Below the pieces are notes generated by a model. The model was not told the DNA's origin. It was given only the letters and a program-made list of their open reading frames with translations, and did no database searches. A stretch of 64,000 nt of DNA from Tetradesmus obliquus. Its lineage: Eukaryota > Chlorophyta > Chlorophyceae > Sphaeropleales > Scenedesmaceae. Positions 1 to 64,000 of the stretch are shown here, piece by piece. Location of the stretch: the NCBI GenBank assembly GCA_030272155.1, contig CP126207.1, positions 2,604,001 through 2,668,000 on the forward strand, given 5' to 3'. The position numbers and the translations under genes were made by a program. How positions within the stretch are numbered: position 1 is the first letter of the stretch; every line of letters begins with the position of its first letter.

Positions 1-3000
1 CATGACCACGCAGCAGCGCGCTCGTGCCTCCTGCAATGAGGTTCCAGTAGAGCCAGGCTAGGCATACCTGTTGCTGGTTTTCCTTCTTCTGCTGTTGCTG
101 CCGCTCCCAATACAAATCATGCCAACTGTTACCAGCAAACACATGCAAAATAAGCAATACACACCAGGACAAGCAAACATATGTACACCCACCTGTGCAG
201 TACAGCTTCAGGGTTGTGCTCAGCCGCAGTGCCCGGGCCATGGCCAGCAGCCGAGATGATGCCTTGAACAGCAAACTCAAGCAGACAATGCAACTTCATT
301 TGCAAGAAGTGCAAGAAACGGCTTGCTTACCTGTGCAGTACAGCTTGAGTGTCGTGTTGAGCCCCAGTGCCCGGGCCATGGCCAGCAGCCGGGGCGCAAG
401 GAACTCCAGCTCATCAGGCTTCCTGCAAGATGCGAAACAGATAACATGTCATGTGACAAGTCGCAACAATTGCACATGTGGAGCCCCAGTGCCTGGACCA
501 TGGCCAGCAGTCGGGGTGCACGGAACTCCAGCTCATCAGGCTTCCTGCAAATTCAAAAAAGGAAATGTTGTAACACAAATTGAAAAACAAGTGTCATGTC
601 ATGTGACAAGTACAAAAACTGAGAAATATGCAGGGTTGCCAGGACAGTGCAGGAGAGTCATATTATACTGCATACATGCATATTATACTGCTAGCAACAT
701 ACAGCGACATATTAAAATGTACTGCACGCCGATGCAGCGCATCCAAAATCTGATGAATTTTCAAAGAGACTGCCGTCAAAACCTTGGGCCACCGCACCTG
801 CAGGCCCAGACGATGAGAGCAGGCAGGCCCGCTGCTGCTGCGCCTGTGGCTGCCAGCCAGCAACAAGCCTTCAAACCCCAAACCCAGTAATGGCAGGCCC
901 GCTGCTGCTGCGCCTGTGGCTGCCAGCCAGCAACAAGCCTTCAAACCCCAAACACAGTAATGGCAGGCACGCTGCTGCTGCGCCTGTGGCTGCCAGCCAG
1001 CAACAAGCCTTCAAACCCCAAACACAGTAATGGCAGGCCCGCTGCTGCTGCGCCTGTGGCTGCCAGCCAGCAACAAGCCTTCAAACCCCCAAACAAAGTA
1101 ATGGCATTTGACACCAGTCATGAAACAAGAAGCGCACCTGCAGGCCCAGACGATGAGCGCAGGCAGGCCCGCTGCTGCTGCGCCAGCTGCCAGCCAATAA
1201 AAAGCTTTCAGACCCCACGACAAAGGCATAGTATTTCAACCTATTTTCAACAGAAGGCGCACCTGCAGGCCCAGATGATGAGAGCAGGCAAGCCAGCTGC
1301 TGCTGCGCCCGCCGCTGCCATCTCCTGGAACACTGAAAAGGCAGCAGTGATGCCCACACCGCCTGCGGCACGACATAACACAAGTGACATAGCAATGTGT
1401 TATGGTTGGTGTCAGTGTGTTACAAGAACAGTCGTGCTGCCATCTCCTGGAAGACAGAGAATGCAGCAGTGATGCCCACACCGCCTGCAGCACGAGATAA
1501 CAAAAATGACAAAGCAACGTGTTACAAATTACTTCAGTATGTTACAAATCAGCAGTGCTGCCATCTCCTAGAAGGCAGCAGTGATGCCCACACCGCCTGC
1601 GACATCACATAAATAACATGCCACATGAAAGGTACAACATGCTTCAGGCATGACATAAGGCATCTCGTCAGTGCTACCAATGCTTGACAAACCATCCCTG
1701 GCATGCAGCATCCCCAACACATCAACCACTCATAGTCGTGATATTCACCCTACGTTGCTGGTGCTGCTGGTGGTGCTGCTTGTCCTTCAACAATCCCACA
1801 ACCAATCACTCACCCGCAGCAATGATCACTCCATTGACACCGCTGCTGCTGCCATGCGTGTCCTTGCTGCTGCTGCTGCTGCTGCCGCACACCGCCGCTG
1901 CCTTTGTCACTTCCGGGTGGCTCAGCACTGGCCCAGGAAGTTCAGCGTAGGGTCCCTCCATCTTCACGGTGAAGTTCACACCAGCCCCACAGTTCACACC
2001 AGAGTTCACACCAGAATTCTGCAAGAGTTCCACGAGCTTCTTGGTCCACCTGTCATATGCCTTGATGTGAATGAGGAGGCCAGTGGTGGCTGCTGCTGCT
2101 GTGGTTTTGTGCTCAGGGTTGAGTGGAACTGCAAAATACTCAAACCTGCAGCATCAACCAGAGTAGGCAGATTGGATACACAGGTTGCCAGTCCAGCCGC
2201 CGGTTTATCTCATGGATGCTCCACACACAGCCAGTGGCATCACCCAATAAACTACTACTGATGAACTGATTATAGATGAAACAACGATGATTTGCTTTTA
2301 TGGTATAATCTACTATTATAGTGTTGATTTCAAAGTATCTCCGACTCACGGGTGCCAGTCCAGCCGCCAGTTTATTTCCGGAATACTGAGCCACACAAAT
2401 CCAGTCGCAGCCACGCCGTAGCGGGGAGCAGCCAGCAGCAGTGACACCATGCTGCCGCCAGGAGATGCCACAGCCTCCAAAACCTCGACTGAGCCACCGA
2501 GGTTGCTAAACCCTGGGGTTTTGCGGCCGCCGCTGCCGTTTAACCCTGGAGGCTTGCTGCTGCGCTCCCAGAGTGACTGCTGCAGGCGGTACACTGCATC
2601 CACTCCGTACAGCATGAGGCCTGCGGGGTGTGAAGTTCACAGTGGTGTGTGTGACGTTCATGCAGTGCACAAACGTTCACGGTGTGAAGAACAACAGCCA
2701 GAGGCACTGCTGCAGGCGGTACACTGCGTCCACTCCGTACAGCATGAGGCCTGCGGTTGTGAAGTTCACATTTTGGAGTGTGAAAATAATAGAGTGCACA
2801 AAAGTTCACACTGTGAAACACAACATTACTCACTCCACACTTTGCTGGCTGCCTTAGGTTTCGATTTATTTGCAGGTGCAGCGCGCTATGTCGCAATGTG
2901 CCTTAGCTCACTAAACCCTCTCTCACCTGGTAGAAAGCAACAGAACATGCCCCGGCAGTTGCAGCAGCCTACTGGAAACTAACTGCTTTGGTTTTGTTGA

Positions 3001-5642
3001 AATCACAGGTACACCCAACACTATAATAATAATCCTCTTAACCCTCTCTCACCTGGCAGGAAGTACCAGAACATGCCCCGGCAGTTGCAGCAGCCTACTG
3101 GAAACTAACTGCTTAGGATTTGTTGATATCGCAGGTACGGCCCAACATATTTGCAACAGAATAAACCCTCTCACCTGGCAGGAAGTACCAGAACATGCCC
3201 CAGTAGTGACAGCAGCCCGCAAACATGAAGCCCCAAAACCCTGCATGCAGCAGCAGCAGCAGCAGCAGCAGAGGCGGCGGCAGCAGCAGCGACAGCAGAA
3301 GTGGCAGCAGCAGCAGCAGCAGCAGCAGCAGTGGCGGCAGCAGCAGCAGCAGCAGACAGGCAGCTGCATTAGTGACCGCAAGTGCAGTGCATACAGCGCC
3401 GACGGCATCACCTCAGCCTGGGTCACAACCAGTTTCCGCAAACAGTGCATTGCAAAAGTCCGCAAAATGCCTGCCACTTTCCGATGTGGTGCAGCTTGAG
3501 AAACGTCTCAAAGCTGCCCCTCCTCACCACCTCAAGCGAGCTCAGCCACATGATCTATTATTATCACGACCGATCATAAACAGTAGCGCACTGTCAGCAC
3601 AGCCACTTGAAATAGAGGTAGAAACCCTTTCCGCTGCCACACTAAAACCTCGCTCACCAATGTGGTGTAGCTTGTAGAATGTCTCATAGCTGCCCCTCCG
3701 CGCAACCTCCAGGGAGCTCAGCCACAGTGCCAGGCCTGACAGGAAAGAGATGCCTCCAGCCAAGTTGTTGATGCGGGCCCCTTGGTCAAAGGCTTCTTTG
3801 ACCCATAAACCCTGGTACAGCCACACGCCCCAAAACCCTAGCGAGTGGGCAGTGACGATGACCATCACAGCGTGACCCAGCCAGCGGTGGTACCTGCAGC
3901 AGCAGCAACAGCAGCAGCAGCAGCAGCAGCAGCAACAGCAGAGCAGCAGCAGGAAGGTTGTTGAACTTGGCACCCTGGTCAAAGGCCTCTTTGACCCATA
4001 AACCCTGGTACAGCCACACACCCCAAAACCCTAGCGAGTGGGCGGTGACGATGACCATCACCGCATGGCCCAGCCAGCGATGGTACCTGCGTGCAGCAGC
4101 AGCAGAATTGCAACATGTAATCAGATTTTCAACCAAAGGTTTGAGGCAGGTGACACGCAAAACAACTCTGTTGCCTGAATCAACGCGGCATGACAAAACA
4201 AAACACAAAAAGGCGTGGCTTCAGCAACCAGGGTAGAACAGCATCAGCAGGTTGGGGAACAGCAGGCTGCCCAAAGCGACCGCCACCAGCATCAGCCGCA
4301 CAGCAGCCAGCCACATCACAAAGCTATACCATATTGAAACAATTGCCAGCGGTTTGAAGACCACAAGCAGCGAAATACAAAACAAGCTGCACACACCTGA
4401 TTGCGTCCGGGTAGCTGATGCCTGATGCAGCCAGCACCACGCTTCCCCTTGTGACCGGGTAGAACAGCATCAGCAGGTTGGGGAACAGCAGGCTGCCCTT
4501 CAGACACTCCTACTGCACCATGAAAGCGCAAACCAACACATTCTGAGCCTTTCAAAAGCTGGTATTAAAGAAAAAAAGGATGCGCACCTGATTGCGTCCG
4601 GGTAGCTTATTCCAGAAGCAGCCAGCACCACGCTTCCTCTTGTTACTGGGTAGAACAGCATCAGCAGGTTGGGGAACAGCAGGCTGCCCAACAACACCAC
4701 AGAGACACACATTGCACGATGAAAAGCACCAAAACAATTCAAGCAGAGCCAAAAAAGAGCAAAGAAAGCTGCACACACCTGATGGCGTCCGGGTAGCTGA
4801 TGCCTGATGCAGCCAGCACCACGCTTCCCCTTGTTACTGGGTAGAACAGCATCAGCAGGTTGGGGACACAATAACACAGCAAACACCACTAATCAAAGCA
4901 GAAATGAAAACACATTTTAACCCAAAACAAAAAAGCTGCACGCACCTGATGGCGTCCGGGTAGCTGATCCCAGAGGCGGCCAGCACCACGCTCCCTCTTG
5001 TTACTGGATAAAAGAGCATCAGCAGGTTGGGGAACAGCAGGCTGCCCAAAGCGACCGCCACCAGCATCAACCGCAGCAGCGGCAAGGGCGTGCCACCTCC
5101 GGAGAAAAAGGGGATCAGCTTGAAGTACCTACAGCATTGACACGGCATATGAAAAACAAGAAGCAAGGTAAGATGAATGTTGAATCGAGTATGTTGGTTT
5201 TGACAGCAGCATGAGATGCAGCAGCGGCAGCGGCGCGCCACCTCCGAAGAAGAAGGGGATCAGCTTGAAGCACCTGCAGGTTACACGCGAGCAGCGTGTA
5301 GTAGCAGCAGCAGCAGTTGAGGAGCATAGCTCTGAGAAAAAACACTTAAAGCCAAACCCTTGGCTTCCAAAGCGACCGCCACCAGCAGCAACCGCAGCAG
5401 CGGCAGCGGTGTTCCGCCACCCGAGAAGAAGGGGATCAGCTTGAAGTACCTGGCACGGCATGTGGAAAACAAGAAGCAAAATAAGGTGCATGTTGTATCA
5501 GGTATGTTCCTCTTTTGACAGCAGTATGAGCCGCAGCAGCGGCAGGGGCGTGTCGCCCCCGGAGAAAAAGGGAATCAGCTTGAAGTACCTGCAAGGTGAC
5601 ACAAAAGAACGGCGCCAGCAGCAGCAGCATCATCAGCAGCAA

Positions 5643-5715
<73 letters not shown>

Positions 5716-6850
5716 GGCAGTGGGCGCAATAGAGGGCAGAATGTGTCATCAGCCGCAGCAGCGACAGGGGCGTGCCACCTCCGGAGAAAAAGGGGGTCAG
5801 CTTGAAGTACCTGCAGCATTGAACACAACAACAGAAAAGTGTGATAGATGCTGGACAGCATGGGGTTTGAAAGGGCCACCGCCACCAGCGAACAGCCGCA
5901 GCATTGGCAGCGATATTTTGCAGGCTGAGCCCGCAACTGCTGAACCCTGTCAGGTCACAAGCATCAACATTGGCTGTAACCTAATGCCTCACCTGTCCAT
6001 CATGTGTGAAACCTCAACATATTTGAAGGTGCTGTTGCTCGTACCCGAAAGACCTGAAACCTAAAACCCTGGCAGCCAGCGCAAGCCTCACCTGTCCATC
6101 ATCGCAATCCAGGCAATGTTCATAGCAGCCCAAGCCGCCACCACCAGCGCATCAGCCAGGCTGCTGCAACCACTGCTCAACCCTGGCATGTTACATGCAA
6201 AACCATTGGCTATAACATCATGGCTAAAACGGTACGGCCTCACCTGTCCATCATGGCGTACATCCAAGCAATGTTGATGGCAGCCCAAGCCGCCACCACC
6301 AGCGCGTAGCCACTGCTACCTACCAACCCTGTTATGTTATGTAACAATCACTTCCCAAAAACGTGACTCTTTACCCTGCACCACCTCAGCTGTCCATCAT
6401 GGATCAGCATTGACAGCATTGATAGCGTCAGCACTGCTAAAAATGTAACAACCCAGTCCAGTTTCAACCACACCAGGCCCACCTGTCCATCATGGCGTAC
6501 ATCCAAGCCACATTGATGGCAGCCAATGCCGCCACCACCAGCGCATCAGCAAGGCTGCTGCAACCGCTGCTAGATCATGTTGTGTTGTTATTTATACTTT
6601 CGCCTTGCTGAATTAAATTAAATTGTTACATTTGGGAAACGGGGCTCGCCAACCCAAACCCGAACCCCTTTCAACACCATGTGTCGTTTATGATGGCAAT
6701 TGCCAACTCTACAAGCCTCACCTGTCCATCATGGCGAACATCCAAGCCACATTGATAGCAGCCCACGCAGCCACCACCAGCGCATCAGCCAGGCTGAGAC
6801 CGCCACACCACCACAGCCAGAAGCGCCTGCAGCAGCAGCAGCAGTGGTGA

Positions 6851-6889
<39 letters not shown>

Positions 6890-7017
6890 GGTGCAGCAGC
6901 AGCAGCAGCAGCGGCAGCAGCAGCAGCACGTCAGGAACATACGATAACTGACCATGCAGCCACCACCAGCGCACCAGCCAGGCTGAGCCCGCCACACCAC
7001 CACAGCCAAAACCGCCT

Positions 7018-7050
<33 letters not shown>

Positions 7051-9954
7051 GCAGCAGAAGCAGCAGCAACAGCGTGTCAGAAACATAAAATGACTGCCCA
7101 TGCAGCCACCACCAGCGCATCAGCCAGGCTGAGCCCGCACCACCACAGCCAGAAGCGCCTGTAGCAGCAGCAGCAGCAGCAGCAGCGGCAGCAAGGAAAG
7201 AGATGCAGCAGCTCAGAGACTCCTGCTGCAGCGGCAGCTCAATAGCAGCAGCAGCAGCAGCAGCAGCAGTGGCGGCAGCAGCAGCAGCAGCAGCGGCAGC
7301 AGCAGCGGCAGCATGCACCATGTGAAGTTGAACCTTATGCAGATCGAACGCACCATTGACATGCATGTTTTGTTGGGTGTGTGGAGGCCGCGCAGCAGCC
7401 GCTATTTAGCATAACAATAAAATAACAATAAAATAACATTAACATGGCTGCAGTTCATGTAGTAGTACAGGGACAACATGGCTGCAATAGCGTTTATGAT
7501 GTCGCCAAATGCACTCGCGTCTGTTCTTCAGCTGCTGTTGGCATGTGCATTGCCGGCTAGTGCTTCATGCTACAGCCTGACTGCAGCATGAAATAGCCTT
7601 CAAGACACATGCAAACAACAGGCAAAGCACAAGCTTTGAGCACCTCAGCATTAACAGACCACTGGCAGCAGCACTGCTCTTTTGTCCCACATAGCGTTGG
7701 TGATGTCGCCAGGTACACAACTATTGTTCTGCAGCTGTTGTTGGCATGTGCCTCGCCGGCTAGTGCTTCACGCTGCAGCCTGACTGCACGATGAAGCACT
7801 AGCTTGCAAGACACAAGCCAACAACAGGCAAAGAACAAGCTTTGAGCACCTCAGCATCACAGACCACTGAGCAGCAGCACTGCCCTTGATTCCCACATAG
7901 CGTTGGTGATGTCGCCAGGTACACAACTATTGTTCTGCAGCTGTTGTTGGCATGTGCCTTGAAGGGTAGTTCTTCAAGGGACGGCATGACTGTTCCATGA
8001 AGCATTAGCTTGCAAGACACAAGCCAACAACAGGCAAAGAACAAGCTTTGAGCACCTCAGCATTAACCGACCACTTGGCAGCAGCACCGTTTTAGTGTCC
8101 CACATAGCGTTGCTGATTTTGCCAGGTAAACCCGCTTCTTCAGCTGTTGTTGGCATGTGCATTGCCGGCTAGTGCTTCACGCTACAGCCTGACTGTTCCA
8201 TGAAGCATTAGCTTGCAAGATACATACGAACAACAGGCAAAGAACAACAAGCTTGAGCACCTTGGCGGCATCAGCAACAGAAAAAGAACAACAGGAAAAC
8301 AATACGCTTGAGCAAAGCAGCGTGTTTGAACAGGCTTGAGCCAACAACAGGCAAACAACAAGCTTGAGCACCTCGGCGGCATCAGCAACAGGAAAAGAAC
8401 AACAGCAAAAAGAACACGCTTGAGCGAACAACAGCTTGTTTGAACAGGCTTGAGCAAACAACAGGCACAGAACAAGCTTGAAGAACAATGGAGGCATCAG
8501 CAACAGGAAAAGAACAACACGAAAAGAATACGCTTGAGCAAAGCAGCGTGTTTGAACAGGCTTGAGCCAACAACAGGCACAGAACAAGCTTGAGCACCTT
8601 GGCGGCATCATGCACCTCTTTCTGCAGCACTGCCCGCAGCACCAGCAGGGCCAGTGCTGCTGCTGCCAGCAGGGCGGGGGCCGCCCACATAATTACAGCA
8701 GGTTGCGCAGCAAGCAGCTTATCGGGAAGCTGATTCAAACCAACAAAAACAAGGCAAAAACAACTCCAAAACATCAAGACTGATGCCAAAGCTTGCAAGG
8801 AAGCTCACCTCGGCGGCATCAGCATTGCAGACCACTTGGAACTGCTGCTGCCATGCCCCTCTTTCTGCAGCACTGCCCGCAGCACCAGCAGGGCCAGTGC
8901 TGCTGCTGCCAGCAGGGCAGGGGCCGCCCACATGATAAGAGCAGGCTGCGCAGCGTGCAGGAGTCCAGCAACCAACTTTGACCCCCCAAAAGGCTGAAAC
9001 TGCTTTCAGAACATACAGATTTTGGCACAAACCAGCTGCAGGAGGGCTCACCTAGGTGGCATCAGCATTGCAGACCACTTGGAAGTGGTGCTGCCATGCC
9101 CCTCTTTCTGCAGCACTGCCCGCAGCACCAGCAAGCCCAGCGCTGCTGCTGCCAGCAGGGCAGGTGCCGCCCACATGAACAGCAGGTTGCGTAGGGTGCA
9201 GGAGTCGAGGAGTTTGGTGTCGTCGCAGTCAAATGAAGGCGGGAAGTGACGCCAGTGCTCCGCATTGCGCCACCTACAGTAACAGTATTGGTGACAGCAG
9301 CAGCAGCAGCAGCAGCAAGTGCAGCTCTGAGAGCCGCAAACTGAGGCAACACATGACTGCAGCGCTCTGCATTACGCCACCTTGCGATAGTGCGGCAGCA
9401 GCAGGCTGTGAGGCGGTAGCCAAAAAAGGGCATCCACGAGAGCAGCAGCAGCACAGTAGGATCCCAGAACAGCACCCGCAGCAGCTGCATGCTAAGACAG
9501 CTGGAGTGCTCCTGCTGCTGCTGCTGCTGCTGTTCAAGATGCTTCCCCCTATCTATGCCCCACATTTTCTTGGTTGCTAACATCCAACCGCAAATACCCA
9601 GCAGAACCCACCTCTCCGTGCCAAAGAATGCCATCCAGGCGAGAAGCAGCAGCACGGGGGGCCCAGGACAGCACCCGCAGCAGCTGCATGCCCGCACCAG
9701 CTGCAGTGCTCCTGCCACTGCTGCTGCTGCTGCTGCTGCTCCTGCTGGTCAAGATGCACCCCTCCCTTCTTTGACCCACATTCTCTGTCATTTCAAACGC
9801 AAACGATAAGAAGCAGTAGCACTCACCTCTCCGTGCCGAAGAAGGCCATCCATGCGAGCAGTAGCAGCACGGGTGCCCAGAACAGCACCCGCAGCAGCTG
9901 CATGCCCGCATGGGCCGCAACTGCCGCAACCTTCGAAGCCTTCGTGCTTGCCAT
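1..9954 (-). CDS. Ferric-chelate reductase (FRO/FRE family), 11 exons seen, 3' end beyond window
   Basis: Predicted membrane flavocytochrome that moves electrons from cytosolic NAD(P)H via FAD and two hemes to external Fe(III), for iron uptake. Exons in coding order: 9954-9827, 9273-9052, 6826-6722, 5128-4946, 3893-3658, 3240-3175, 2620-2350, 2145-1814, 1362-1263, 422-331, 67-<1. All junctions are GT-AG and phases agree throughout (1735 nt to the end of exon 10, about 578 residues). Exon 1 starts at ATG 9954 with a hydrophobic anchor (LLRVLFWAPVLLLLAW). Exons 3-6 form the ferric-reductase membrane core with His-rich helices (YHRWLGH, VTAHSLGFWG, YKLHHIG, CCHYWGMFWYFLPG). Exons 7-8 hold the FAD-binding segment ending in an HPF motif (DWHP|FEYF) and VKMEGPYAELP. 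Exons 8-9 hold the nucleotide-binding AAGGVGIT, followed by LIIWACR. The family is inferred from motifs; the substrate metal is not proven. Nearly every exon is laddered with partial copies. Confidence 0.88.
192..560 (-). repeat. Splice-boundary ladder around ferric reductase exon 10
   Basis: The complete exon is 422-331. One head copy (476-546) repeats the acceptor and the KPDELEF start. One tail copy (192-250) repeats the end of the exon through LKLYCT plus a GT donor. Copies differ by several substitutions. Confidence 0.8.
778..1600 (-). repeat. Splice-boundary ladder around ferric reductase exon 9, with 69-bp tail array
   Basis: The complete exon is 1362-1263. Two head copies near 1440-1500 and 1560-1597 repeat the acceptor plus GGVGITA. 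Five tail copies repeat the Ala-rich 3' half; three of them (about 889, 958, 1027) are spaced exactly 69 bp. The outer tails (near 1140-1200 and 780-850) keep the exon end and GT donor (LIVWACR). Confidence 0.85.
2165..2760 (-). repeat. Splice-boundary ladder around ferric reductase exon 7
   Basis: A head copy at about 2703-2754 repeats the acceptor and GLMLYGVDAVYRLQ. A tail copy at about 2165-2235 repeats the RLDWQP end of the exon (complete exon 2620-2350). Short direct repeats related to the words gtgaagttcac and gtgcacaa lie between the head copies. Confidence 0.75.
2925..3110 (-). repeat. Tail copies of ferric reductase exon 6
   Basis: Two copies (about 2925-2990 and 3045-3110) of the end of exon 6, coding RGMFWYFLP-like residues plus the GTGAGAG donor, lie downstream of the complete exon 3240-3175 in the coding direction. 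Confidence 0.75.
3483..4088 (-). repeat. Ladder around ferric reductase exon 5
   Basis: One long head copy (about 3958-4088) repeats the heme-ligand segment YHRWLGH...VTAHSLG and ends in KFNN. A tail copy (about 3483-3545) repeats RRGS-ET-LKLHHI but has lost the GT donor. The complete exon is 3893-3658. Confidence 0.75.
4225..5812 (-). repeat. Ladder around ferric reductase exon 4: four heads, four tails
   Basis: The complete exon 5128-4946 codes YFKLIPFFSGGG to SYPDAIR. Heads at about 5210-5273, 5375-5452, 5525-5590 and 5750-5812 repeat the acceptor and YFKLIPFF. Tails at about 4775-4862, 4590-4690, 4400-4500 and 4225-4310 repeat LLMLFYPVTRG and, where complete, the donor. A (CAG)n tract of about 100 bp lies at 5632-5715. 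Confidence 0.85.
6090..7162 (-). repeat. Ladder around ferric reductase exon 3
   Basis: The complete exon 6826-6722 codes RFWLWWCGGLSLADAL to FAMMDR. Two heads (about 6975-7021, 7100-7162) and at least three clear tails (about 6480-6560, 6240-6308, 6090-6165) flank it. Shorter tail remnants of the MMDR-donor end are visible near 5990 and 6390. Confidence 0.8.
7400..8960 (-). repeat. Tail array of ferric reductase exon 2 with intronic long-period repeats
   Basis: Two long tail copies (about 8810-8960 and 8590-8710) repeat the LLAAAALALLVLRAVLQKE part of exon 2 (complete at 9273-9052). Further down, 7530-8250 holds three or four diverged copies of a roughly 230-bp unit that still contains a WSVNAE-like exon remnant next to GTGCTC. 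From 8250 to 8580 there is an array of short units with the word caagcttgag. No separate gene is seen here. Confidence 0.7.
9410..9705 (-). repeat. Two tail copies of ferric reductase exon 1
   Basis: Copies at about 9612-9705 and 9410-9500 repeat MQLLRVLF to AWMAFFG of the first exon. The nearer one keeps the ACGGAGAG|GTGGG donor; in the further one it is degraded. Confidence 0.75.
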
Positions 9955-11646: not shown

Positions 11647-27353
<15,707 letters not shown>

Positions 27354-51426: not shown

Positions 51427-51480
<54 letters not shown>

Positions 51481-51534
51481 AGAATGTGTCAAAGCTGCTC
51501 GGGCCTGCTGCTGACCTCCTCTCACAGTCCAACC

Positions 51535-51620
<86 letters not shown>

Positions 51621-51674
51621 AGAATGCCTCCACGCTGCTGGGGCCTGCCGCAGACCTCCTCTCACAGGTCAACC

Positions 51675-51754
<80 letters not shown>

Positions 51755-51808
51755 AGAATGCATCCACGCTGCTGGGCCCTGCCGCAGACCTGCCCTCACA
51801 GACCAACC

Positions 51809-51855
<47 letters not shown>

Positions 51856-52851
51856 AGAATGCCTCCACACTCCTGGGCCCTGCGGCAGACCTACTCTCAC
51901 AGGCCAACCCCTGCTGGCTGGTCCAAACAGGTTTAGGGCTGCTGCGCGAGCAGCAGCGGCAGCAGCAGCAACAGCAGCAGCAGGGGGAACAGTGGCGGCC
52001 AAATGGGTTGTTACATGTAGCTGCAGCATTCCTGGCAGATGCCGGCGGCGGTTTAGGCGCAGCAGCAGCAACGGCAGCTGGGATGCTGGAGAGATCAGCG
52101 CCTGAGCTGCTTCGGGGTTTTGGAGCCGACTTCAAGCCAGGGTTTGGGTTTTGGAACAAGCGGCTGCCGCAGGGTTTAGGCCGCATTCACAGGAATCTGG
52201 ACCGCATCGGGGTTTTGACGCTGGATCAGGTGGTTGGGAGTTATAACCTGCAGCTGCAGCGAATGCCGGCGGAGCTGAAGGATTTGCCCCAGCAGCAGCA
52301 GCAGCAGCAGCAGCAGCACCAGCATCTGCAGAACTTGCAGCAGCTGATGGATTGGTGGCCGTGGCTGCTTGCTGCTCAGGAGGAGCTGATGCAGGCTGCC
52401 TGGCAGCTGCTGGTGCAGCGGCTGCTGATGAAACCAAGCGAGGTGAGCATGGTTTACGCTTGTACAAGTCAAGTCCTGAGGTGGTGGTGTTCTCTCAACC
52501 CATACACTGAAAGGCTTGGGGAGCTGTGTTTCAGTGATATTTTTAGGGGGATGGCAGCTTCTGTTTGGGGAGCGGGGGGGGGGGGGGGGCTTGTGCTGGC
52601 TGCTTGCTGCTCAGGAGGAGCTGATGCAGGCTGCGTGGCAGCTGCTGGTGCAGCGGCTGCTGATGAAACCAAGCGAGGTGAGCGTGCTTAGGCTTGTAAA
52701 CTTTACCCTGACATGATAAACCCTTATGCCTTGCAACAATGGTAGAACCTGGCAGCGGTGTGAGCAGCTCTTAGGAGCTGCTGCTGTCTGGTAATCACGG
52801 AAACTGCAAAGGTTTGTGCTATAATTAGTCGACCCTGACACTGCTGCTGCC

Positions 52852-52884
<33 letters not shown>

Positions 52885-55800: not shown

Positions 55801-56935
55801 TTCACTGCTTTCTTGTGTGCTTGCTGTGGTGTTCCATTGCCCTGCGTTGGTTGCATCAGGCGCGTACGCTGCTGCGTGTTGCTTTTGTGGTATGTGGTGT
55901 CTTGGGGGTTGGGGCTGCACCCGCGCTCATGCCGTCTTGGCGGTTGGGGCTGCACCCGCGCTGATGCCGTCTTGGGGGTTGGGGCTGCACCCGCGCTGAT
56001 GCCGTCTTGGGGGTTGGGGCTGCACCCGCGCTCATGCTGTCTTGGGGGTTGGGGCTGCACCCGCGCTGATGCCGTCTTGGGGGTTGGGGCTGCACCCGCG
56101 CTCATGCTGTCTTGGGGGTTGGGGCTGCACCCGCGCTGATGCCGTCTTGGGGGTTGGGGCTGCACCCGCGCTCATGCTGTCTTGGGGGTTGGGGCTGCAC
56201 CCGCGCTGATGCCGTCTTGGGGGTTGGGGCTGCACCCGCGCTCATGCCTGCTGCGGCGGCTGCCGCTGCTGACCAAGCTGCGGCTGGAGCAGTGGACCAA
56301 CACCGCCTCAGACGTGAGTGATTGGGGCGTTCAGCTGTTTAGATATGCTAAACACATACATGCACTAATCTCTTAGGGTTTTCATGTCACCAATAGGGTT
56401 TTAATGTCATCAATATGATTAGGAGCTGTGCTACACATACACGTACAATGTTGATCAGGAGCTGTCAGCTGTCCTGCGGTTGCCTTTGCTTCGTGGTCTG
56501 TGGTGTCTGTATTGTTGTGTTTGCCTAATGCCAGTCGTTAGTTACACCGCAACAGACCATTTTCAGCAGGCAGCTGTAGCAGTAGACCAGCACCGCGGCC
56601 CATGAACCGGCGCACAGTATGTTGTGCTTCCATTGCTGCTGTTCGCTGCTGGAGACCCATGTGGTGTATGGCGCCTCTGTCATGGAGCTTGGTCAGGCAA
56701 TTCTGCTGCTGCTGCTGCTGCTGCTGTTTCTCACAGGTTGCTGATCAGCAGCTGCCAGTGGCTGTGGCCTGCCTGCCGCACGGCCTCACCAGCCTGGGTT
56801 TAACAAACGCGGAGCCCGAGGTTTTAGCAGATCCCCTGCAAACCCTAGCAGCAGCAGTGCGCTTGGCTGGCGGCGTAGAGGCAGTGGCAGCAGCAGCAGA
56901 TGCTGCGGCGGCGGCTGCAGCAGCCTCACGCAAGC

Positions 56936-56973
<38 letters not shown>

Positions 56974-57230
56974 GAGGTGAAGTTCAGTGCTGCTGCTATG
57001 TCAGCAGCAGCACAGGCAGTACTGAATGCTGCAGAGGCAGCTGAGGGCCCAGGCAGCGCAGCAGTGAGCGAAGTTCTCACCAGGAGTTCACGGTGGCGTT
57101 CACAGGCAGCTTCAAACCTGATTTCAAAGTTCTCTTCACCGCCGAGTGCCTGTGAATCCGGCGAGAAGTTCCGGCCGCCATTCCTGGCCTTTGGGGTCGG
57201 GCTGCAGAGCAGCGGCAGCACCATTCGAGA

Positions 57231-57271
<41 letters not shown>

Positions 57272-57409
57272 AAGACACGCCAGAAGCGTTTGCAGCCGCC
57301 GCAATAGATAACGCTTCTGATGCAGCGAGTTACTGTTCTGTGCTGATTGGCAGCCGCAGGTGGCTGCCCCCTCAAGGTATTGCACTGCTGCTGCTGGACA
57401 CGTTCTTCG

Positions 57410-57447
<38 letters not shown>

Positions 57448-57571
57448 CATGCGTGGCAGCAGCTGCTCGGCTGCTGCGACAGCTGCTGCTGCCTGCACAG
57501 CAGCAGCAGCAGTAGTTGCAGCACGCATAGCCACGCTGACCATGCTGCTGCAACAGCAGCAGCTGCAGGCC

Positions 57572-57606
<35 letters not shown>

Positions 57607-60600
57607 GGCCGGCGCAGCCCCTGCTGTGTTGCTGGGGTGTTTAGGGCTTTAGAGGAGCTGAGCATTGTGGCTCATGGCTCCAAGCGCAGCAGCAGCAGCA
57701 GCAGCAATGGGCTGGGTGCTTTCCTGGCGGCTGGTCTGCCGCATGCAGCAGCGCTGCAGCGGCTGCACGTCAGCACACCAGGTGAGGCACTGAACCCTAG
57801 AGCTAGTTGTTGACCAGGGCTCGAGCCTTGTAGGTTTTTGCATTTTTGTAACTCATTGCGGGCAGCTGGTGCTGCACGACAGCACACCAGGTGAGGCATT
57901 AAACCGTAGGGGTGTTAAGGGCTTTAGAGGAGCTGAGCATGGTGGCTTACGGCTCCCCGCGCAGCAGCAGCAGCAATGGGCTGGGCGCTTTCCTGGCGGC
58001 TGGGCTGCCGCATGCAGCGGCACTGCAGCGGCTGCACGTCAGCACACCAGGTTAGTGTGAACCCTAGCTGGATTTGACCAGGGTTCCTAAACTGATTGTT
58101 TTGCACTATCTTTCCGTGTTTTAGTTGGCTGGGCTGATGCATACAGCTGCATTGCAGCGGCTGGGGTGTTTAGGGCTTTAGAGGAGCTGAGCATTGTGGT
58201 TCACGGCTCCAAGCGCAGCAGCAGCAGCAACGGGCTGGGCGCTTTCCTTGCAGCTGGGCTGCCGCATGCAGCTGCTCTGCAGCGGCTGCACGTCAGCACA
58301 CCAGGTGAGACACTAAAACCTAAAGTAGGGTTGATCAGGGCCCAAACGCTGTAAGATCCTCTGGTTTTGAAGCATGTTGTTGGCGGCTGGGCTGCCGCAT
58401 GCAGCAGCGCTGCAGCGGCTGCACGTCAGCACACCAGGTGCGACACTTAACCCTAGAGCTCGATTTGATCAGGGCTCAAACCATGTTAATGTTTGCAGTG
58501 TTTCAAGTTATTTGCGGGTGGCTGGTGCCATGCCGCCGAGTGAGGTGATGATCTAGGGGCCAACACCAACACTCAATGCAGCCACCCTTTACATACATTG
58601 CTCCCAAGAAAATCATGATGAACATGATCCAAATGGCACCAACCGTTGTTTGACACTCACTCCGGCTGCTGCTGCCATCACCAATTCAATCTGCAGGTGG
58701 TTTTGATGCCATGCCGCCAAGTGAGGCTGCGATCTACGGGCTGACAGCTGCCCTCAACGCAGCCACCCATCACTGACATTTGCACTGACCGAAACCAGCC
58801 CTGACATTGACACACACTCCTGCTGCTACTACTGCTGCTGCTGCTGCTGCTGCTTGTTCTCGCGCCTACTGCAGGTGGCTTTGACGCCATGCCGCCAAGT
58901 GAGGCGGCGATCCACGGGCTGACAGCTGCCCTCAACGCCGCCACCCTCCACTCACATTTGCACTGACCGAAACAAGCCCTAACATCGACACACACTCATG
59001 CGTCTACTGCTGCTGCTGCTCCTCGCCTCAACTGCAGGTGGGTTTGACGCCATGCCGCCAAGTGAGGCAGCAATCTACGGCCTGACAGCCACCCTCAACG
59101 CAGCAACCCTGCACGCGTTTGACGCCGCCACATCCCGCGCAATGTCGTCAGTGCATTCAAGCGGCTGGTGGCAGCGGTTCAGCGGCAGCAGCAGCAGCAG
59201 CAGCAGCAGCAGGGGGCTAGGGAAGAAGGATTCGGGCAGGGGCAGCAGCCATGCCTGGCTGGCGTCACTGCGAGGCCTGCCAGGCTTGACAGATCTGCAC
59301 TTGGACATGCCACTGGTGCTGCCTGGGCAGGTGAGGGCTGCATATTTCAACTGTTGTTTTGAATTTGAGGGGTCGGGGTTTGAGAATTACTGTGTCGCGG
59401 GGGCTGCCAGGCTTGACATACTTGCTCCTGGATATGCATCTGGTGCTCTGCCACTGGTGCTGCCAGGACAGGTGAGATTGACATGGTATCAGGCCAAAGG
59501 TTTGTAGCGTGTTACTTGTTTGGCAGGGGCAGCAGCCATGCCTGGCTGGCATCACTGCGGGGGCTGCCAAGCTTGACAGATCTGCACTTGGATATGCCAC
59601 TGGTGCTGCCAGGACAGGTGAGGGCTACGAGGTTTTAGGGTTTCAAGCTTTAAGTGTGATGAGTGGATGTGTGATGCTGCAAGGCCTGCCAAGCTTGACA
59701 GACTTGCACCTGGACATGCCACTGGTGCTGCCTGGGCAGGTGAGAGCTGCATATTTCAAGTGTTGTTTCTGAATTTGAGGGGTTGGGGTTTGAGAATTTT
59801 CGTGTGGCAGGGGCTGCCAGGCTTGACAGACTTGCACCTGGACATGCCTCTGGTGCTTCCAGGACAGGTGAGAGCTGCAAGCGTGCTTTAATTTTCCGGC
59901 AGATGTGTGCATGGGGTTGAGGGTGTAAGGGTGTTCTGCTGCGGGGGGCTGCCGAGCTTGACAGACTTGCACCTGGACATGCCGCTGGTGCTGCCTGGAC
60001 AGGTGGATACAACAGAGTTCAGGGTGTTTTAGGTTGTGCGTCACCTGGGCATGCCGCAGTAGGAGCCATTGGCCGCTTCCATGGCAGCCACCAGCATGCT
60101 ATGCATGTCACTCAGCAGCATGCTCAGCCCCTTGTGCCTGCTCTTTTGCATGCTCCCGTAATCCTTGTGCCCGCAAACCTTTTTTGCCCCATTGGCTGCA
60201 GTGGCAGTCACCAGCATGCTATGATGATAGCTGAGCAGCATTTTTCTCTGCACTTGTGCCTGGAATGTTGCTTACTTCCATCATTCTTTGTGCCCGCCGA
60301 TCTTTCTTGCTGTAGCTCGAGGCGTTGGCAGCCTCTGTTGCAGCCAGCAGCAGCCTGCGCTCCCTCAGCCTGCACGGAGTGGCACTTAACATGTACGCTA
60401 GCCACCAGCTGCTGCTCAACACACTGGTCGGCCTCAAACCCCTAAGCCCCGAGTCAGCTGCCGCCGCCAGCAGCAGCAGCAGCAGCAGCGGCAGCAGAGG
60501 CGGCAATTCAGGGCCCAACATGTTGCAGCATGTTGACCTGAGCTTCACTAAGCACTGCGGGGTAGCGCCAGCTGGCATGTCTTTGTCCAAAGTGTGGGCG

Positions 60601-61342
60601 CGCATCAAGAGGCAGCAGCACGATGCAGCTATGCAGCAGCAGCTCGGCAGCCTGCAGCAACTACAGGGGCAGCTGCAGCAGTTCCACGATGCAGCAGCGG
60701 CCGCTATGGCGGCCGGGGCGCCGCCTCTGAACCCTGGGGTCGCAGCGACGGCGGTTGCAGCAGCGGTAGCGCTGGTCTTTGACGGGAATGCAGAGGCAGC
60801 GGCTGCACTGCAGCAGCAGTTTAACGACGCACTGCAGCTTGGGCCGCAGCAAGGGGCTGCCGCTGGCGGTGCAGGCCACCAGCAGCAAGCTGCCGCACCA
60901 CCAGCTGCAGCTGCGTTTGCAGCGGATGTGGCCGCAGCCATGATGGGGGATGATGGTGGGCAGGGCATGGACGGCTTGGCTGTGCTCAACAACGTGATGA
61001 TGCAAATGGACCACCAGATGCACATGATCACACACCACTCGCCACATGCAGTGAGCGAGATGGCCATGGGCCACGCCTCCGCAGCGAGCTCCGCGGACAA
61101 GCAACTGATACGGCTGCTCACATCAGCGCTACAGGCTAGGGGCGTGAGCGACCTGTCGGTGCGCATGCACGGAAGCGGCGCGGCAGACAAACCGGGTGCA
61201 CACGGTGTGGCTGCACCCATGGGCGCTGGCGGAGGCTCGGCGTGGGGAGGAGCTGGCGCGGCTTCGGGCTCGGGCAAGGGCGCAGCTGACGAAAGCGACG
61301 GCGATGATGACGATGACGCATGCAGTGATGGTGGCGCTGGTG

Positions 61343-61375
<33 letters not shown>

Positions 61376-62259
61376 TGGAGCTTGTGCAGCCGCGCATGCG
61401 CCTAGGGTTCTTTGAGAGGACGGGGGTGTCCGGTGCTTTCGACAACCTGGGGTCGTGCGCAACATCTTGTCTGGCGTATACGACAGTGTCCGTAATGCAC
61501 AGCATCCGCCGGCCCGCCTCGCAGCCTCAGCAACCCACGTGGTGGGCAGTGGCTACGCTGCAGCGGGCGTGGGGTGCAGTGCGCATCGCGCTGGCCACGG
61601 GCCTCGCGCTCACGGTCGCGCTGCTGGCGATGACGTCGACGTATTTTGCGAGCGAAGAGGAGCTGGAGCACCTGCGGGCAGTGGGCTTCATGCCCCCGCA
61701 GGCGCAGCCGCAGCAGGACGACCACCAGCAGGGCGACCATCAACACAATGACGCACACGGCGACGGCGTGTCCTCTGAGTGGGAAGAGGAGGATGAGGAG
61801 CTGGAGGAAGACGAGCAGCAGCAACATATGGAGATAGAGCACATAGAGCAGCATCAGGCTCCGCCCGCTCCGGCGGCCCCTGCACAGCACGGCATGCTGG
61901 GGAATGTGCAGGCAGCCCTGGGCGTGTTCTTGCACCCGGAAGCAGCCGCCGCGGCGGGCGGCGGCGGGCTCGGCGGTTTCCTGGGAGGCCCGCATGTCAA
62001 CCCCGAGGCGGTGGACATGGGCATCCAAGAGTTGCTGAACCCCGACGGGGAGGACAAGCCGCTGGAGGCAGATGCGAATGGGGGCATGACGGGCATCCCT
62101 GTGCAGGTGCAGGTGGTGGCTGGGCTGAACAGCGCTGCCTCTTGGAGCTTTGTGGTGGGCGCGGCGCCGGTGGCTGCGCTGGGGGTGTGGTTTTGGTGCC
62201 GGCAGCTGAAGTGGGCTGTGAGTGGCGCGTTTGCGCTGGCGCGCTACGCCTTCAGCTGA
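43880..62259 (+). CDS. Giant F-box/leucine-rich protein with two C-terminal membrane segments, 13 exons
   Basis: Exons 43880-43942, 44324-44449, 45312-45792, 46498-47283, 48404-48532, 50686-51068, 51858-52442, 52896-53064, 53670-54763, 55391-55495, 56737-57781, 59038-59330, 60316-62259 close in one frame over 7203 nt (2400 residues plus TGA). The N terminus is an F-box (PQLPDPAIK|AICAALPLPARCQARLVCRAW), implying a role as an SCF ubiquitin-ligase adaptor. Degenerate leucine-rich repeats follow (LKQLRAVQLSVDG, LTRLTHLALHANG, LKYLEVLGFW, LKSLEVRG, LTKLRLEQW, LQRLHVSTP, LTDLHLDMP, LRSLSLHG), interrupted by poly-Gln, poly-Ala and poly-Ser inserts and a His-rich patch (46600-46660). The last exon carries an acidic stretch and two hydrophobic segments (about 61579-61645, 62136-62220). 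The target is unknown. Whether all exons form one transcript needs RNA. Confidence 0.75.
44513..45190 (+). repeat. Tail array of the F-box exon (exon 2)
   Basis: Downstream of exon 44324-44449, five tails with intact GT donors end at 44633, 44762, 44877, 45007 and 45132. Each repeats LAGEAVNS...AAQLRKQ. Two shorter remnants lie at about 44513-44545 and 45170-45190. Periods are 115-184 bp. Confidence 0.9.
45886..46300 (+). repeat. Tail array of F-box gene exon 3
   Basis: Three tails (about 45890-45967, 46078-46127, 46230-46294) repeat AASSAVLQLEVGDYEEMAPP; the first two keep a GTGAGCTG donor. Confidence 0.82.
47494..49807 (+). repeat. Largest ladder: F-box gene exon 5, seven heads and six tails
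   Basis: The complete exon is 48404-48532. Heads start at 47494, 47613, 47749, 47856, 47969, 48107 and 48251, each after a CTG-rich tract ending in CAG, and repeat GLKQLRAAQLSVDGGF. Tails end at 48744, 48941, 49170, 49381, 49621 and 49807 and repeat FHWGVGAGQQGAGGASN plus a GTGCG donor. Head period 107-153 bp, tail period 186-240 bp. Copies are diverged; some heads contain stops. Confidence 0.93.
50026..50545 (+). repeat. Head array of F-box gene exon 6
   Basis: Four heads (starting about 50026, 50155, 50273, 50437) repeat GQLTRLTHLALHANGAD after CTG-CAG acceptors. The last extends to LLQLTNMRELLMSGP. The complete exon is 50686-51068. Confidence 0.88.
51420..51857 (+). repeat. Head array of F-box gene exon 7 with long (CTG)n acceptor tracts
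   Basis: Heads starting at about 51482, 51622 and 51755 repeat NASTLLGPAADLLSQ. The intervening introns are almost pure (CTG)n runs of 50-85 bp ending in CAG. The complete exon is 51858-52442, with one tail at about 52610-52678. Confidence 0.9.
53125..53575 (+). repeat. Tail of exon 8 and heads of exon 9 of the F-box gene
   Basis: A tail of exon 8 (52896-53064) lies at about 53131-53183 (DGGMLPVVADSRMPA plus GTGAGA). Heads of exon 9 (53670-54763) lie at about 53284-53383 and 53476-53575 (VALEELLDYVFCAGPFDAP). A tail of exon 9 lies at about 54838-54970. Confidence 0.85.
55155..56315 (+). repeat. Ladder around F-box gene exon 10
   Basis: The complete exon is 55391-55495. Heads at about 55165-55215 and 55250-55315 repeat LSGVLAPTPLGLLLL. 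Tails at about 55718-55779 and 56250-56313 repeat RLPLLTKLRLEQWTNTASD plus GTGAGTG. Confidence 0.87.
55893..56250. repeat. 35-bp minisatellite in F-box gene intron 10
   Basis: About ten tandem units (cttgggggttggggctgc followed by acccgcgct). Most adjacent units alternate between gatgccgt and catgctgt ends, giving a 70-bp higher-order unit. Confidence 0.93.
57870..58440 (+). repeat. Tail array of F-box gene exon 11
   Basis: After exon 56737-57781 come tails at about 57910-58051, 58160-58302 and 58375-58438, repeating ALEELSIVxHGSKRS, LGAFLAAGLPHAAALQRLHVSTP and mostly a GTGAG or GTGCG donor. A short remnant lies near 57870-57890. Confidence 0.85.
58505..60002 (+). repeat. Ladder around F-box gene exon 12: three heads, five tails
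   Basis: The complete exon is 59038-59330. Heads at about 58510-58560, 58697-58765 and 58875-58950 repeat GGFDAMPPSEAAIYGLTA. Tails at about 59400-59471, 59525-59618, 59680-59740, 59812-59870 and 59945-60002 repeat LPSLTDLHLDMPLVLPGQ plus a donor. Confidence 0.88.
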
Positions 62260-64000
62260 ACAGCTGGCTGGGAGGTGCGTGAACGCCACATGCACAACTT
62301 GTTGTTACAATCATCCCATATGCAGCTTGTTGTGTTGGGCAGCAGCGGTGTGGCTCTTGGGTATTGTGGTGTGGCTCTGATCAATGGTGGAGCTTCTGTG
62401 GACACGGCGTCGGTTGCGGCGCTGGGGGTGTGGTTCTGGTGCCGGTAGCTGAAGTGGGTTGTGGGTGGCGCGTTTGCGCTGGCGCGCTACGCCTTCGGCT
62501 GATGCGGCTAGCTGGATGGTGCGGTAACGCCACATGCGCATGTTGTCGGCTTAGTAATCGCATGTGTAGCTTGTTGTTCGAGACGTCGACCGCGCACTGT
62601 GTTATCGTACTTGGTGTGGCCGGGCTGAACAATGCTGCCAGCCTGGCGGCGCCTCCTGGAGCTTTGTGGTGGGCGCGGCCCTTGTCCATCCCTTTCCCAA
62701 AACATGATGTAACGTTGTTATTTTGCGTGAGGTGATGCACACTTGGGAGAAGGCAATGGATGTGTTGCAAGCGCCATGCTTGTGCAGCCCGACTTTCAGC
62801 TGATAACAAGTGTTCACTGAAACCACTTTGGGAGGCAGCCAAGCACGCTGCATGCTTGGAGCTGTTGAGGCAGCAGCATCGCTGACTGCCCAGCCCGCGG
62901 TGCGCAGCATGGACAGCATGGACTGCAACCATCAACTGGCTAGTACGCCAGGCTGGCTGAAGGCGGGGTATGTGCTGCAGTTGCTGCAGTTTACAGCGGT
63001 GTGGCGTGGTATGGCAGGTTGTGCCTATGGGCGGCATGTAGTGTGATTGCCTCTCGCTCTCCCGCATTGCAAAAATGCAACTAAATGAATGCTCCCTTAC
63101 CGTCCGTTGAATCAACATGCGGGGGATGATGCAACCCTTCACATGGTCCGTGCCTATGTAACAGGAGAGTTTACTGCAGGAAGGACTAATGTGCCCTGGC
63201 TGCCAAGGTGCATGTTACTGCAGCAATTGACAGTACGCCACGTCAGCATTGTTCCAGGCTGCGGCGACCACTTTTGCAGCTGTAAAAGCAATCAAAGCGA
63301 CATTAATGCCCCCAAACTTCTCTTTCAGCACGCACACCGCGCCCAGGCAGTGGCAGAGGGAAAAGCCCGCGAACAGCAGCAACGTCTGAGTCGGACGCCG
63401 ACTCGCTTCAGATAGCACAGCAGGCTGTTCGTGCCAGAACATCAGCTCAAAGCATGCTTAATTTGCAGTCAATCCAAGTCGAAAAGCGCGACGAAGCCGC
63501 TGGACGACACCAGACGAGTGCATGTGTCAGCTGAATCGTGTGTCTGTAGCAGCAGACTGCAAGTGACACAGTGCAGGCTTACTCACTGCAGCTGGGCTTC
63601 ATAAAAGTGCATTTTTTAGTAGTGAAGCTGTTTGCTATAGACAAGCCACGGGTGGCAGCAGGGAAGCACTCAAAGGCCAGCAACCTGAGGGTCTGTTACT
63701 ATCACAGCAAACCATTCCACAGCAAACTGTTCATAGCAAACTGTGAGGCTCAGGTCACCCGAGCTCAGTTGCGTTTGTAACACCACCCAATTTGCGTTTT
63801 CAAGCAGGAGTACCTGCAAGTTACAAGTTACAAGTCCTACGCATCAGAAGCAGGCCAACCTGCTTGAGCCTATGCTCTTCCACGCGTAAATTAGAGAAGG
63901 ACAAGGACAGACAGAAGTACCTGCAGTTCACTGCCACCTGAACAGCGGTGTTTATATATTCAAGGGTTATAACGTGCATGCAGGTCAATCATTGCAGGTG
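62260..64000. other. Downstream region of the F-box gene; copies of its last exon end, otherwise no clear gene
   Basis: At about 62395-62540 a copy of the 3' end of exon 13 (LGVWFW...GAFALARYAF) continues past the stop codon and contains a premature TAG. A second fragment (about 62617-62682) repeats the AGLNNAAS part. From 62700 to 64000 I see no confident gene; the minus strand 63442-63215 is open with a hydrophobic stretch (GGINVALIAFTAAKVVAAAW) but lacks an ATG and splice context. Confidence 0.6.

What the first reader, a model, noticed from the sequence alone, without database searches (positions are those of the whole stretch)
192..62682. Splice-boundary ladders: exons flanked by serial partial copies with a strict head/tail order
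In all five genes, copies upstream of an exon contain intron end + AG acceptor + exon 5' part. Copies downstream contain exon 3' part + GT donor + intron start. One complete, phase-compatible exon sits between. I count this at about 43 of 56 exons on both strands. Choosing only the complete exons closes long frames (2400, 922, 503, 396 and >578 residues), so the order rule has predictive value. Repeated tandem duplication of 70-240 bp segments spanning exon-intron borders explains it mechanically, since only border-spanning copies leave the exon intact. The frequency, regularity and retention of working splice signals suggest either an unusual mutational process that builds introns or a reservoir of alternative splice sites. 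I know of no description of this pattern, but could not search.
Basis: partly seen in the sequence, partly recalled or inferred. Interest (0 to 1): 0.92.

Follow-up and report, generated by a model that had tools for sequence, protein, structure and literature searches.

The report
Partial exon copies flanking algal exons
In a green alga's chromosome many exons are flanked by one to seven broken copies of their own ends, and the copies differ from the working exon mostly in silent positions, which suggests they descend from other, recently working versions of the gene.

Summary
The ladders are real. The window is Tetradesmus obliquus contig 17. I modelled 52 exons in five genes; 35 have flanking partial copies. 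Of 149 copies, 57 heads lie upstream and 63 tails downstream; 2 break the order, 25 are internal, 2 whole. The order is geometry plus selection: a tandem duplication across a border leaves an intact exon only in that arrangement. The papain/RCC1 gene is nearly free of it (2 of 9 exons), and the window is dense for this genome (39% of bases in local repeats; 22 stretches on other contigs average 8.5%).

The surprise lies elsewhere. Copies differ from the resident exon by 27.7% at fourfold sites but 4-5% at codon positions 1-2 (52 of 53 families show the bias). Decay beside one working exon does not give that. Yet head copies have no strong inner donor and some copies carry stops or frameshifts, so they do not look used. 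Best reading: copies descend from diverged functional alleles and decayed briefly since. 42 of 45 arrays touch exons. Allelic diversity was not measured; the sister strain's DNA would decide.

The parts
331..9954 (-). Ferric-reductase-like gene (10 exons modelled in the window), ladders at 9 of 10 exons
   Evidence: spliced alignment to P0243; copies; exon tally
5204..5810 (-). 4 head copies of ferric reductase exon 4 (exon 4946-5128)
4397..4866 (-). 3 tail copies of ferric reductase exon 4
6092..6557 (-). 3 tail copies of ferric reductase exon 3 (exon 6722-6826); 2 heads at 6943-7158
11650..26599 (-). TrpB-like PLP enzyme gene, 14 exons, 459 aa; ladders at 11 of 14 exons
   Evidence: exons translate to annotated P0003 without a difference; all 36 genome matches of P0003 lie in this locus
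13743..14358 (-). 5 head copies of TrpB exon 12 (exon 13486-13640)
12219..13341 (-). 5 tail copies of TrpB exon 12
16265..17238 (-). 7 head copies of TrpB exon 10 (exon 16046-16208); 2 tails at 15740-15972
22324..23004 (-). 4 tail copies of TrpB exon 3 (exon 23149-23265); 2 heads at 23448-23657
19894..20265 (-). 4 tail copies of TrpB exon 6 (exon 20341-20402)
28144..33726 (+). Papain + RCC1-repeat gene, almost free of ladders (2 of 9 modelled exons): an internal contrast
   Evidence: spliced alignments to P0242 and P0244, combined
38253..41914 (+). Six-hairpin-like conserved gene (five modelled exons; the gene runs further), ladders at 3 of 5; e.g. 3 heads at 39223-39568 and a tail at 39888-39933 around exon 39637-39785
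   Evidence: exon ends partly uncertain
47262..62256 (+). LRR-type gene matching sister-strain protein P0241; ladders at 10 of the 14 exons used
   Evidence: two small aligned pieces (47262-47283 and 60679-60690) were not used and several junctions look poor
47494..48320 (+). 7 head copies of LRR exon 48404-48532
48660..49621 (+). 5 tail copies of LRR exon 48404-48532
59449..60002 (+). 5 tail copies of LRR exon 59038-59330; 2 heads at 58697-58951

Best explanation
Local tandem units made of an exon end plus adjoining intron arise and multiply next to exons. Selection keeps only arrangements that leave one complete exon, so 5'-part copies must lie upstream and 3'-part copies downstream (shown by the anatomy). 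The copies themselves have no coding role now, but their sequences descend from diverged functional versions of the exon, that is, alleles of other T. obliquus lineages (inferred). Each was brought next to the resident exon by recombination between very different homologues: either the unit was born in an unequal exchange, or an ordinary duplication was later separated from its parent exon by crossing-over. After that the copies decayed neutrally for only a short time. Exons are the best-conserved stretches between such homologues, so exchange, and hence array growth, is centred on exons (inferred, by analogy with Schizophyllum commune).
For: Order: 120 of 122 head/tail copies. Differences between 122 copies and their exons: 627 synonymous, 229 nonsynonymous, 6 stops, against 244/593/25 expected for neutral change. 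Fourfold sites 27.7%; positions 1-2 4.2% leaving out first positions that can change silently, 4.8% with them (253 of 5230). Other third positions accept transitions (0.148 per site) but few transversions (0.025), fourfold sites both (0.096 and 0.179). 52 of 53 families show position 3 above positions 1-2; the ratio positions 1-2/fourfold is 0.173 (family bootstrap 0.137-0.214), against 0.63-0.66 in simplified simulations of an array with one functional unit on one chromosome. Copy-versus-copy divergence by codon position is 0.084/0.062/0.259. Copies do not look used: 0 of 57 strong donors at head inner ends, 4 of 52 open in-frame read-throughs; 18 of 30 indels are not multiples of three; 20 of 120 copies carry a stop or frameshift, and even those have N/S of 0.51 (0.33 in the other 100, permutation P = 0.04). 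At 8 covered residue sites where resident and sister strains differ, copies mostly carry the sister residue at 5 and the resident's at 3; at sites where distant relatives differ, copies match the resident over the relative 92:3, 168:3 and 183:3. No second TrpB locus that could be the source (36 matches, all here). 42 of 45 arrays touch an exon; 3 intron-only arrays seen, 15.5 expected by simulation or 24.0 by scaling, after correcting for detection. In S. commune, 51 of 71 crossovers between diverged homologues lay in exons (PMC4209137, abstract and passages).
Against: Allelic diversity was never measured: no sister-strain DNA was available, and fourfold divergence near 0.28 would be extreme; the distance between the S. 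commune parents was 0.14 (PMC4209137, passage). Position-3 divergence is surprisingly uniform among copies (estimated true sd 0.03), whereas a simple coalescent predicts wide variation. The direct contrast between 'constant constraint' and 'two phases' favours two phases by only 2.3 log-likelihood units, P = 0.10 for the correlation, so the near-constant position 1-2 divergence across classes must not be over-read. Changes unique to one copy are less silent than the rest (families with three or more copies: 66 synonymous, 70 nonsynonymous, 1 stop; with two: 48, 25, 1; unique to the exon: 44, 7). Nonsynonymous differences are more conservative than neutral (P = 0.002), and positions 1-2 have a transition excess (162:91) that intron flanks (438:492) and fourfold sites (150:279) lack, so part of them arose under constraint. 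Intron flanks, where alignable, differ by only 16.2%, less than fourfold sites; local alignment trims them. The residue comparison has 8 sites. Counts treat copies of one family as independent except in the bootstrap.
Confidence: 0.58

Rival explanations
1. Ordinary tandem duplications at random positions on one chromosome; border-spanning ones survive because they leave the exon intact, and the copies decay neutrally.
For: Explains the head/tail order fully. Stops and frameshifts occur. Border-crossing duplication is documented elsewhere (PMC4974935, abstract and passages).
Against: The positions 1-2/fourfold ratio is 0.173, against 0.63-0.66 simulated for one functional unit per chromosome; copy-versus-copy comparisons keep the codon pattern; arrays are centred on exons beyond the random-placement model.
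Confidence: 0.12
2. Copies are kept intact in place by direct function, for example as alternative exons or regulated splice sites.
For: Coding-like substitution pattern; AG and GT mostly kept; nonsynonymous changes mildly conservative.
Against: No strong inner donors (0 of 57), AG at tail starts at the random rate (25 of 63 = 0.40, random 0.42), read-through rarely open and in frame (4 of 52), frames spread 19/18/15; 20 of 120 copies broken by stops or frameshifts.
Confidence: 0.08
3. Silent-cassette cycling: copies exchange with the functional exon often enough that defective copies are weeded out because they would break the gene when copied in (second-order selection).
For: Would explain constraint without splicing use, including kept splice sites; copies share exon sequence and successive copies lie a median of 149 bp apart.
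Against: Conversion frequent enough to weed copies should also homogenise them, yet copies differ by 26% at position 3; broken copies are common (20 of 120). No conversion tract was tested.
Confidence: 0.17
4. Assembly artefact: diverged haplotypes of the same region placed in tandem.
For: Would give mostly synonymous differences. Reads were not available.
Against: 16 of 53 families have three to seven copies, with a median spacing of 149 bp over all families; in the seven families compared pairwise most copies differ from one another; codon-periodic copies occur on other contigs too.
Confidence: 0.05

Closest known systems
Potato RdRp intron gain by border-crossing tandem genomic duplication (PMC4974935; abstract and passages)
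   Same: A tandem duplication crosses an intron-exon boundary and copies the intron end, acceptor and exon 5' part
   Different: One event making a new spliced intron with a recruited donor; here copies at 53 borders, no strong inner donors, no new intron shown, and mostly synonymous divergence
[quoted passage not shown] the originals not seen)
   Same: Tandem copies of exon sequence inside a gene, protein unchanged
   Different: That model needs an AGGT in the duplicated exon segment to supply GT and AG; head copies here have no strong inner donor (0 of 57)
Tandem exon duplication and mutually exclusive exons (PMC6071210, abstract and passages)
   Same: Tandem copies of exons with flanking intron; exon similarity kept by coding constraint
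   Different: There the copies are whole exons; here 2 of 149 copies are whole
Exon-centred crossing-over in hypervariable Schizophyllum commune (PMC4209137; abstract and passages)
   Same: Recombination between very diverged homologues prefers conserved exons; proposed here as the source of exon-centred arrays
   Different: Observed crossovers in a fungus; duplicated exon fragments did not appear in the passages I saw
Silent-cassette systems such as pilE/pilS or vlsE (recalled, not from a call)
   Same: One complete expressed copy beside several partial silent copies
   Different: Cassettes vary the protein; here the variation is mostly synonymous and no exchange is shown

Membership tests
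Border-crossing tandem duplication | Copies are direct, local and contain exon end, splice dinucleotide and adjoining intron | tested here: met
   57 heads and 63 tails in order; AG 55 of 58, GT 54 of 64 over all copies; intron homology beyond the splice site in 36 of 52 head and 29 of 48 tail flanks tested, not detected in the rest
Border-crossing tandem duplication | A new intron is spliced between the copies (potato case) | not testable with these tools
   no RNA data; no strong inner donors at head copies
Rogers/Hellsten intron gain | The duplicated exonic segment supplies GT donor and AG acceptor of a new intron | tested here: not met
   0 of 57 strong donors at head inner ends; GT in the 9-nt window 13 of 57 (random 0.38); AG at tail starts 25 of 63 (random 0.42)
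Mutually exclusive exons | Whole exon copies with both splice sites | tested here: not met
   2 whole copies of 149
Introner elements | Related intron sequences dispersed among unrelated genes | tested here: inconclusive
   within the window 273 of 286 repeat pairs lie within 2 kb, so the repeats are local; dispersal over the genome was not searched
Silent-cassette conversion system | Exchange of sequence from partial silent copies into the complete copy | not tested
   needs many strains or passaged lines
Hypervariable-species recombination | Very high allelic diversity in the population | not testable with these tools
   only proteins of other strains were available; against the sister strain 3 of 451 aligned TrpB residues and 54 of 1271 LRR residues differ

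The most novel reading that the evidence does not exclude
The flanking partial exons are a living archive of alternative alleles: in a hyperdiverse alga each exon sits in a small local pool of silent partial versions, renewed by exon-confined recombination and possibly swapped back into the working exon, so that introns hold recently functional coding sequence.
Probability: 0.25. Interest if true: 0.88.

Novelty: new variant of a known kind. Interest (0 to 1): 0.72.

Why it matters
If the copies are archived alleles, one genome sequence records several past functional versions of an exon, which would let one read diversity, recombination and array age from a single assembly. It would make T. 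obliquus a test case for how meiosis copes with very diverged homologues, give introns a route of growth driven by exon-confined exchange, and raise the question of how the spliceosome ignores up to seven decoy sites per border. If instead the copies prove to be maintained in place, that would be a new kind of functional intronic sequence.

Tried and rejected
Triplet repeats as the driver: of 47 acceptors examined (first modelled exons left out), 11 of 21 with head copies and 11 of 26 without have a simple repeat within 60 nt upstream (Fisher P = 0.56). Not supported.

Ladder age gradient: in the 16 families of three or more copies, divergence does not rise consistently with distance from the exon (mean Spearman 0.09).

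Whole-gene paralogue as source: all 36 matches of the TrpB protein lie in this locus. The same search with the ferric reductase did not complete.

Saturation of fourfold sites: expected mismatch at saturation is 0.635, observed 0.277. Rejected.

Smaller contigs have more arrays: Spearman -0.37, P = 0.06 over 27 stretches, and -0.24 over 12 contigs. Not established.

Splicing of head to tail copies: no support.

Literature: ten searches; two gave nothing and of the longer results only the top was listed (29: 12 of 32; 47: 20 of 525; 48: 15 of 23; 59: 8 of 12; 66: 8 of 92). No listed title or abstract start described such ladders. PMC12571836, searched for words only, has neither 'intron' nor 'tandem' in its main text; it cites a 1965 report titled 'Scenedesmus obliquus sexuality' (reference line; the report itself not seen). 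Most subscription papers and bioRxiv were not held.
Full report
Identity. The window is contig 17, bases 2,604,001-2,668,000, of a 104.66-Mb genome in 17 contigs. Contig 17 is 3,054,181 bases long, the length given for the contig that encodes Tetradesmus obliquus protein OEZ86_007295, P0003. A table in PMC12571836 (passages only) lists T. obliquus GCA_030272155.1 with 104.7 Mb and 17 contigs and a second assembly, GCA_030272055.1; I infer that the first is this genome and that the second is the strain of the OEZ85 proteins.

Gene models. I wrote a spliced protein-to-DNA aligner. The TrpB-like gene (minus strand, 26599-11650, 14 exons) translates to the 459-aa annotated protein without a difference, and the proteins of two relatives give the same exons from exon 2 onward. 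A ferric-reductase-like gene (minus, 9954-331) was modelled on a transcript-derived relative, 10 of 11 aligned pieces used; a papain/RCC1 gene (plus, 28144-33726) on P0242 and P0244 combined; an LRR gene (plus, 47262-62256) on a sister-strain protein, 14 of 16 pieces used; a six-hairpin-like gene (plus, from 38253) on two distant homologues, 5 pieces used and some ends set by me. That makes 52 exons. One papain exon was left out of codon counts because its frame is uncertain.

The ladders. Searching each exon against its own gene gave 149 copies: 57 heads upstream, 63 tails downstream, 2 order breaks, 2 whole, 25 internal. 35 of 52 exons have ordered copies: ferric reductase 9 of 10, TrpB 11 of 14, papain/RCC1 2 of 9, six-hairpin 3 of 5, LRR 10 of 14. 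The 120 ordered copies form 53 border families, 23 of them single copies and 16 with three to seven; successive copies lie a median of 149 bp apart. The exonic part has a median of 67 nt in heads and 68 in tails. The order follows from geometry: in a tandem duplication of intron end plus exon start, only the last copy is joined to the rest of the exon, and the reverse holds at the donor.

Abundance. Local repeats cover 39% of the window. 22 stretches on other contigs (20 of them in adjoining pairs) average 8.5%, range 0-30%; five other stretches of contig 17 give 10, 43, 0, 35 and 40%. Eight short kinase loci (L001-L008) were left out of that mean; six have none, two have 34 and 17%. The window is therefore not typical of the genome. 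In a listing of codon-periodic repeat pairs for four loci, such pairs occur in L019 (contig 7), L023 (contig 11) and L032 (contig 17), none in L021 (contig 9); no gene models were made there. Over the 20 random stretches mismatches are codon-periodic beyond chance (z 7.7), driven by L015 (z 10.8), L021 (3.6), L023 (2.5) and L019 (2.2); L015 looked to me like an ordinary in-exon protein repeat.

The anomaly. Copy-versus-exon differences are mostly silent: 627 synonymous, 229 nonsynonymous, 6 stops, where neutral change with the same total predicts 244, 593 and 25. Divergence is 27.7% at fourfold sites and 4.2% at positions 1-2 when first positions that can change silently are left out, 4.8% with them. 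Other third positions show six times more transitions than transversions, while fourfold sites show more transversions; that is a coding signature and not a positional mutation bias. 52 of 53 families agree; the ratio of positions 1-2 to fourfold divergence is 0.173, bootstrap interval 0.137-0.214. Comparing copies with one another gives the same pattern (0.084, 0.062, 0.259 by codon position), so it does not come only from the working exon's own evolution.

Why simple decay fails. On one chromosome only one unit of an array is functional at a time, so at least half of the divergence time between two units is unconstrained. Simplified simulations with duplication, deletion and promotion of units (three rates, 60 runs each) give a ratio of 0.63-0.66, far above 0.173.

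Why present use looks unlikely. Head copies lack strong inner donors (0 of 57), tails have AG at their inner start no more often than random (25 of 63, random 0.42), reading through from a head acceptor into the exon is open and in frame in 4 of 52 cases, and frames are spread 19/18/15. Of 30 indels in exon parts 18 are not multiples of three, and 20 of 120 copies have a stop or frameshift. From the 19 gaps per 100 substitutions and the gap lengths seen in intron flanks I estimate, by my own arithmetic, that the 18 frameshifts stand for about 150, and the 6 stops for about 200, substitutions gained while unconstrained, out of 857. So the copies seem to have been free of constraint only recently.

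It cannot have been in this chromosome's single exon, and no second TrpB locus was found. The remaining source is functional exons of other lineages. At 8 residue sites covered by copies where resident and sister strain differ, copies mostly carry the sister residue at 5 and the resident's at 3 (9 copy residues against 3, one neither), as expected for separate alleles of one species; at sites where three more distant relatives differ, copies match the resident rather than the relative by 92 to 3, 168 to 3 and 183 to 3. The numbers for the sister strain are small.

Position of arrays. Of 45 local arrays in the five genes 42 touch an exon. Masking exons and copies leaves intron similarity detectable in 12 of the 42, so power for intron-only arrays is about 0.29; random viable placement then predicts 15.5 intron-only arrays (simulation) or 24.0 (scaling), and 3 were seen; none of 20,000 simulations gave 3 or fewer. 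The model assumes equal ages and collapsed introns, so treat the figure as approximate. It fits exchange confined to exons, as reported for Schizophyllum commune, where 51 of 71 crossover regions lay in exons (PMC4209137, passages).

Weak points. The uniformity of position-3 divergence among copies (estimated true sd 0.03) is not what a simple coalescent predicts. The contrast between constant constraint in place and a two-phase history is small (2.3 log units; correlation P = 0.10); the case rests more on stops, frameshifts and missing splice sites. Changes unique to one copy are less silent than the rest, and the conservatism of nonsynonymous changes and the transition excess at positions 1-2 (162:91, against 438:492 in intron flanks) say that some of them arose under constraint. 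Alignable intron flanks differ by 16.2%, less than fourfold sites, though local alignment trims them. Diversity in the species was not measured; whether this alga has sex I know only from the title of a cited report. No read or RNA data were seen.

Verdict. Nothing here requires working alternative splice sites. The unexpected fact is that intronic exon fragments carry the mark of recent coding constraint, best explained by descent from other functional alleles.

Noticed in passing
window:28144-33726: The papain/RCC1 gene is almost ladder-free although it lies between laddered genes; its RCC1 exon differs strongly between the two strains (235 of 375 residues identical) while a papain-part exon is 93 of 96 identical.
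   Followed up: partly
window:30106-30227: Reading this region as in the other strain's protein (P0244) meets an in-frame stop; the annotated protein of this strain (P0242) splits it into two tiny exons instead.
   Followed up: no
window:10859-11554 (-): Open frame between two genes that looks to me like the C-terminal end of a non-LTR retrotransposon reverse transcriptase (label recalled; no Pfam hit).
   Followed up: no
window:14962-15170: A perfect 209-bp TAG repeat flanked by ATT repeats inside a TrpB intron.
   Followed up: no
window:35597-36148 and 55899-56248: Conventional short-period tandem arrays (27 bp and 35 bp) unlike the exon ladders.
   Followed up: no
whole window: Simple repeats are overwhelmingly AGC/GCT triplets (3272 of 3808 masked bases); they often form the tract before acceptors but do not predict head copies.
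   Followed up: yes
L032:7636-8244: About 6 kb left of the window, two 104-bp copies differ at 13 positions, all in one codon phase, with identical protein; with the copies at 7388-7656 this looks like another ladder (no gene model).
   Followed up: partly
contig C17: Local-repeat coverage varies from 0 to 43% in five other stretches of this contig; L030 (43%) shows no codon periodicity in its repeats, so not all arrays are coding ladders.
   Followed up: partly
copies in all genes: Position-3 divergence between copies and exon is nearly the same everywhere (about 0.235), an unexplained uniformity.
   Followed up: partly
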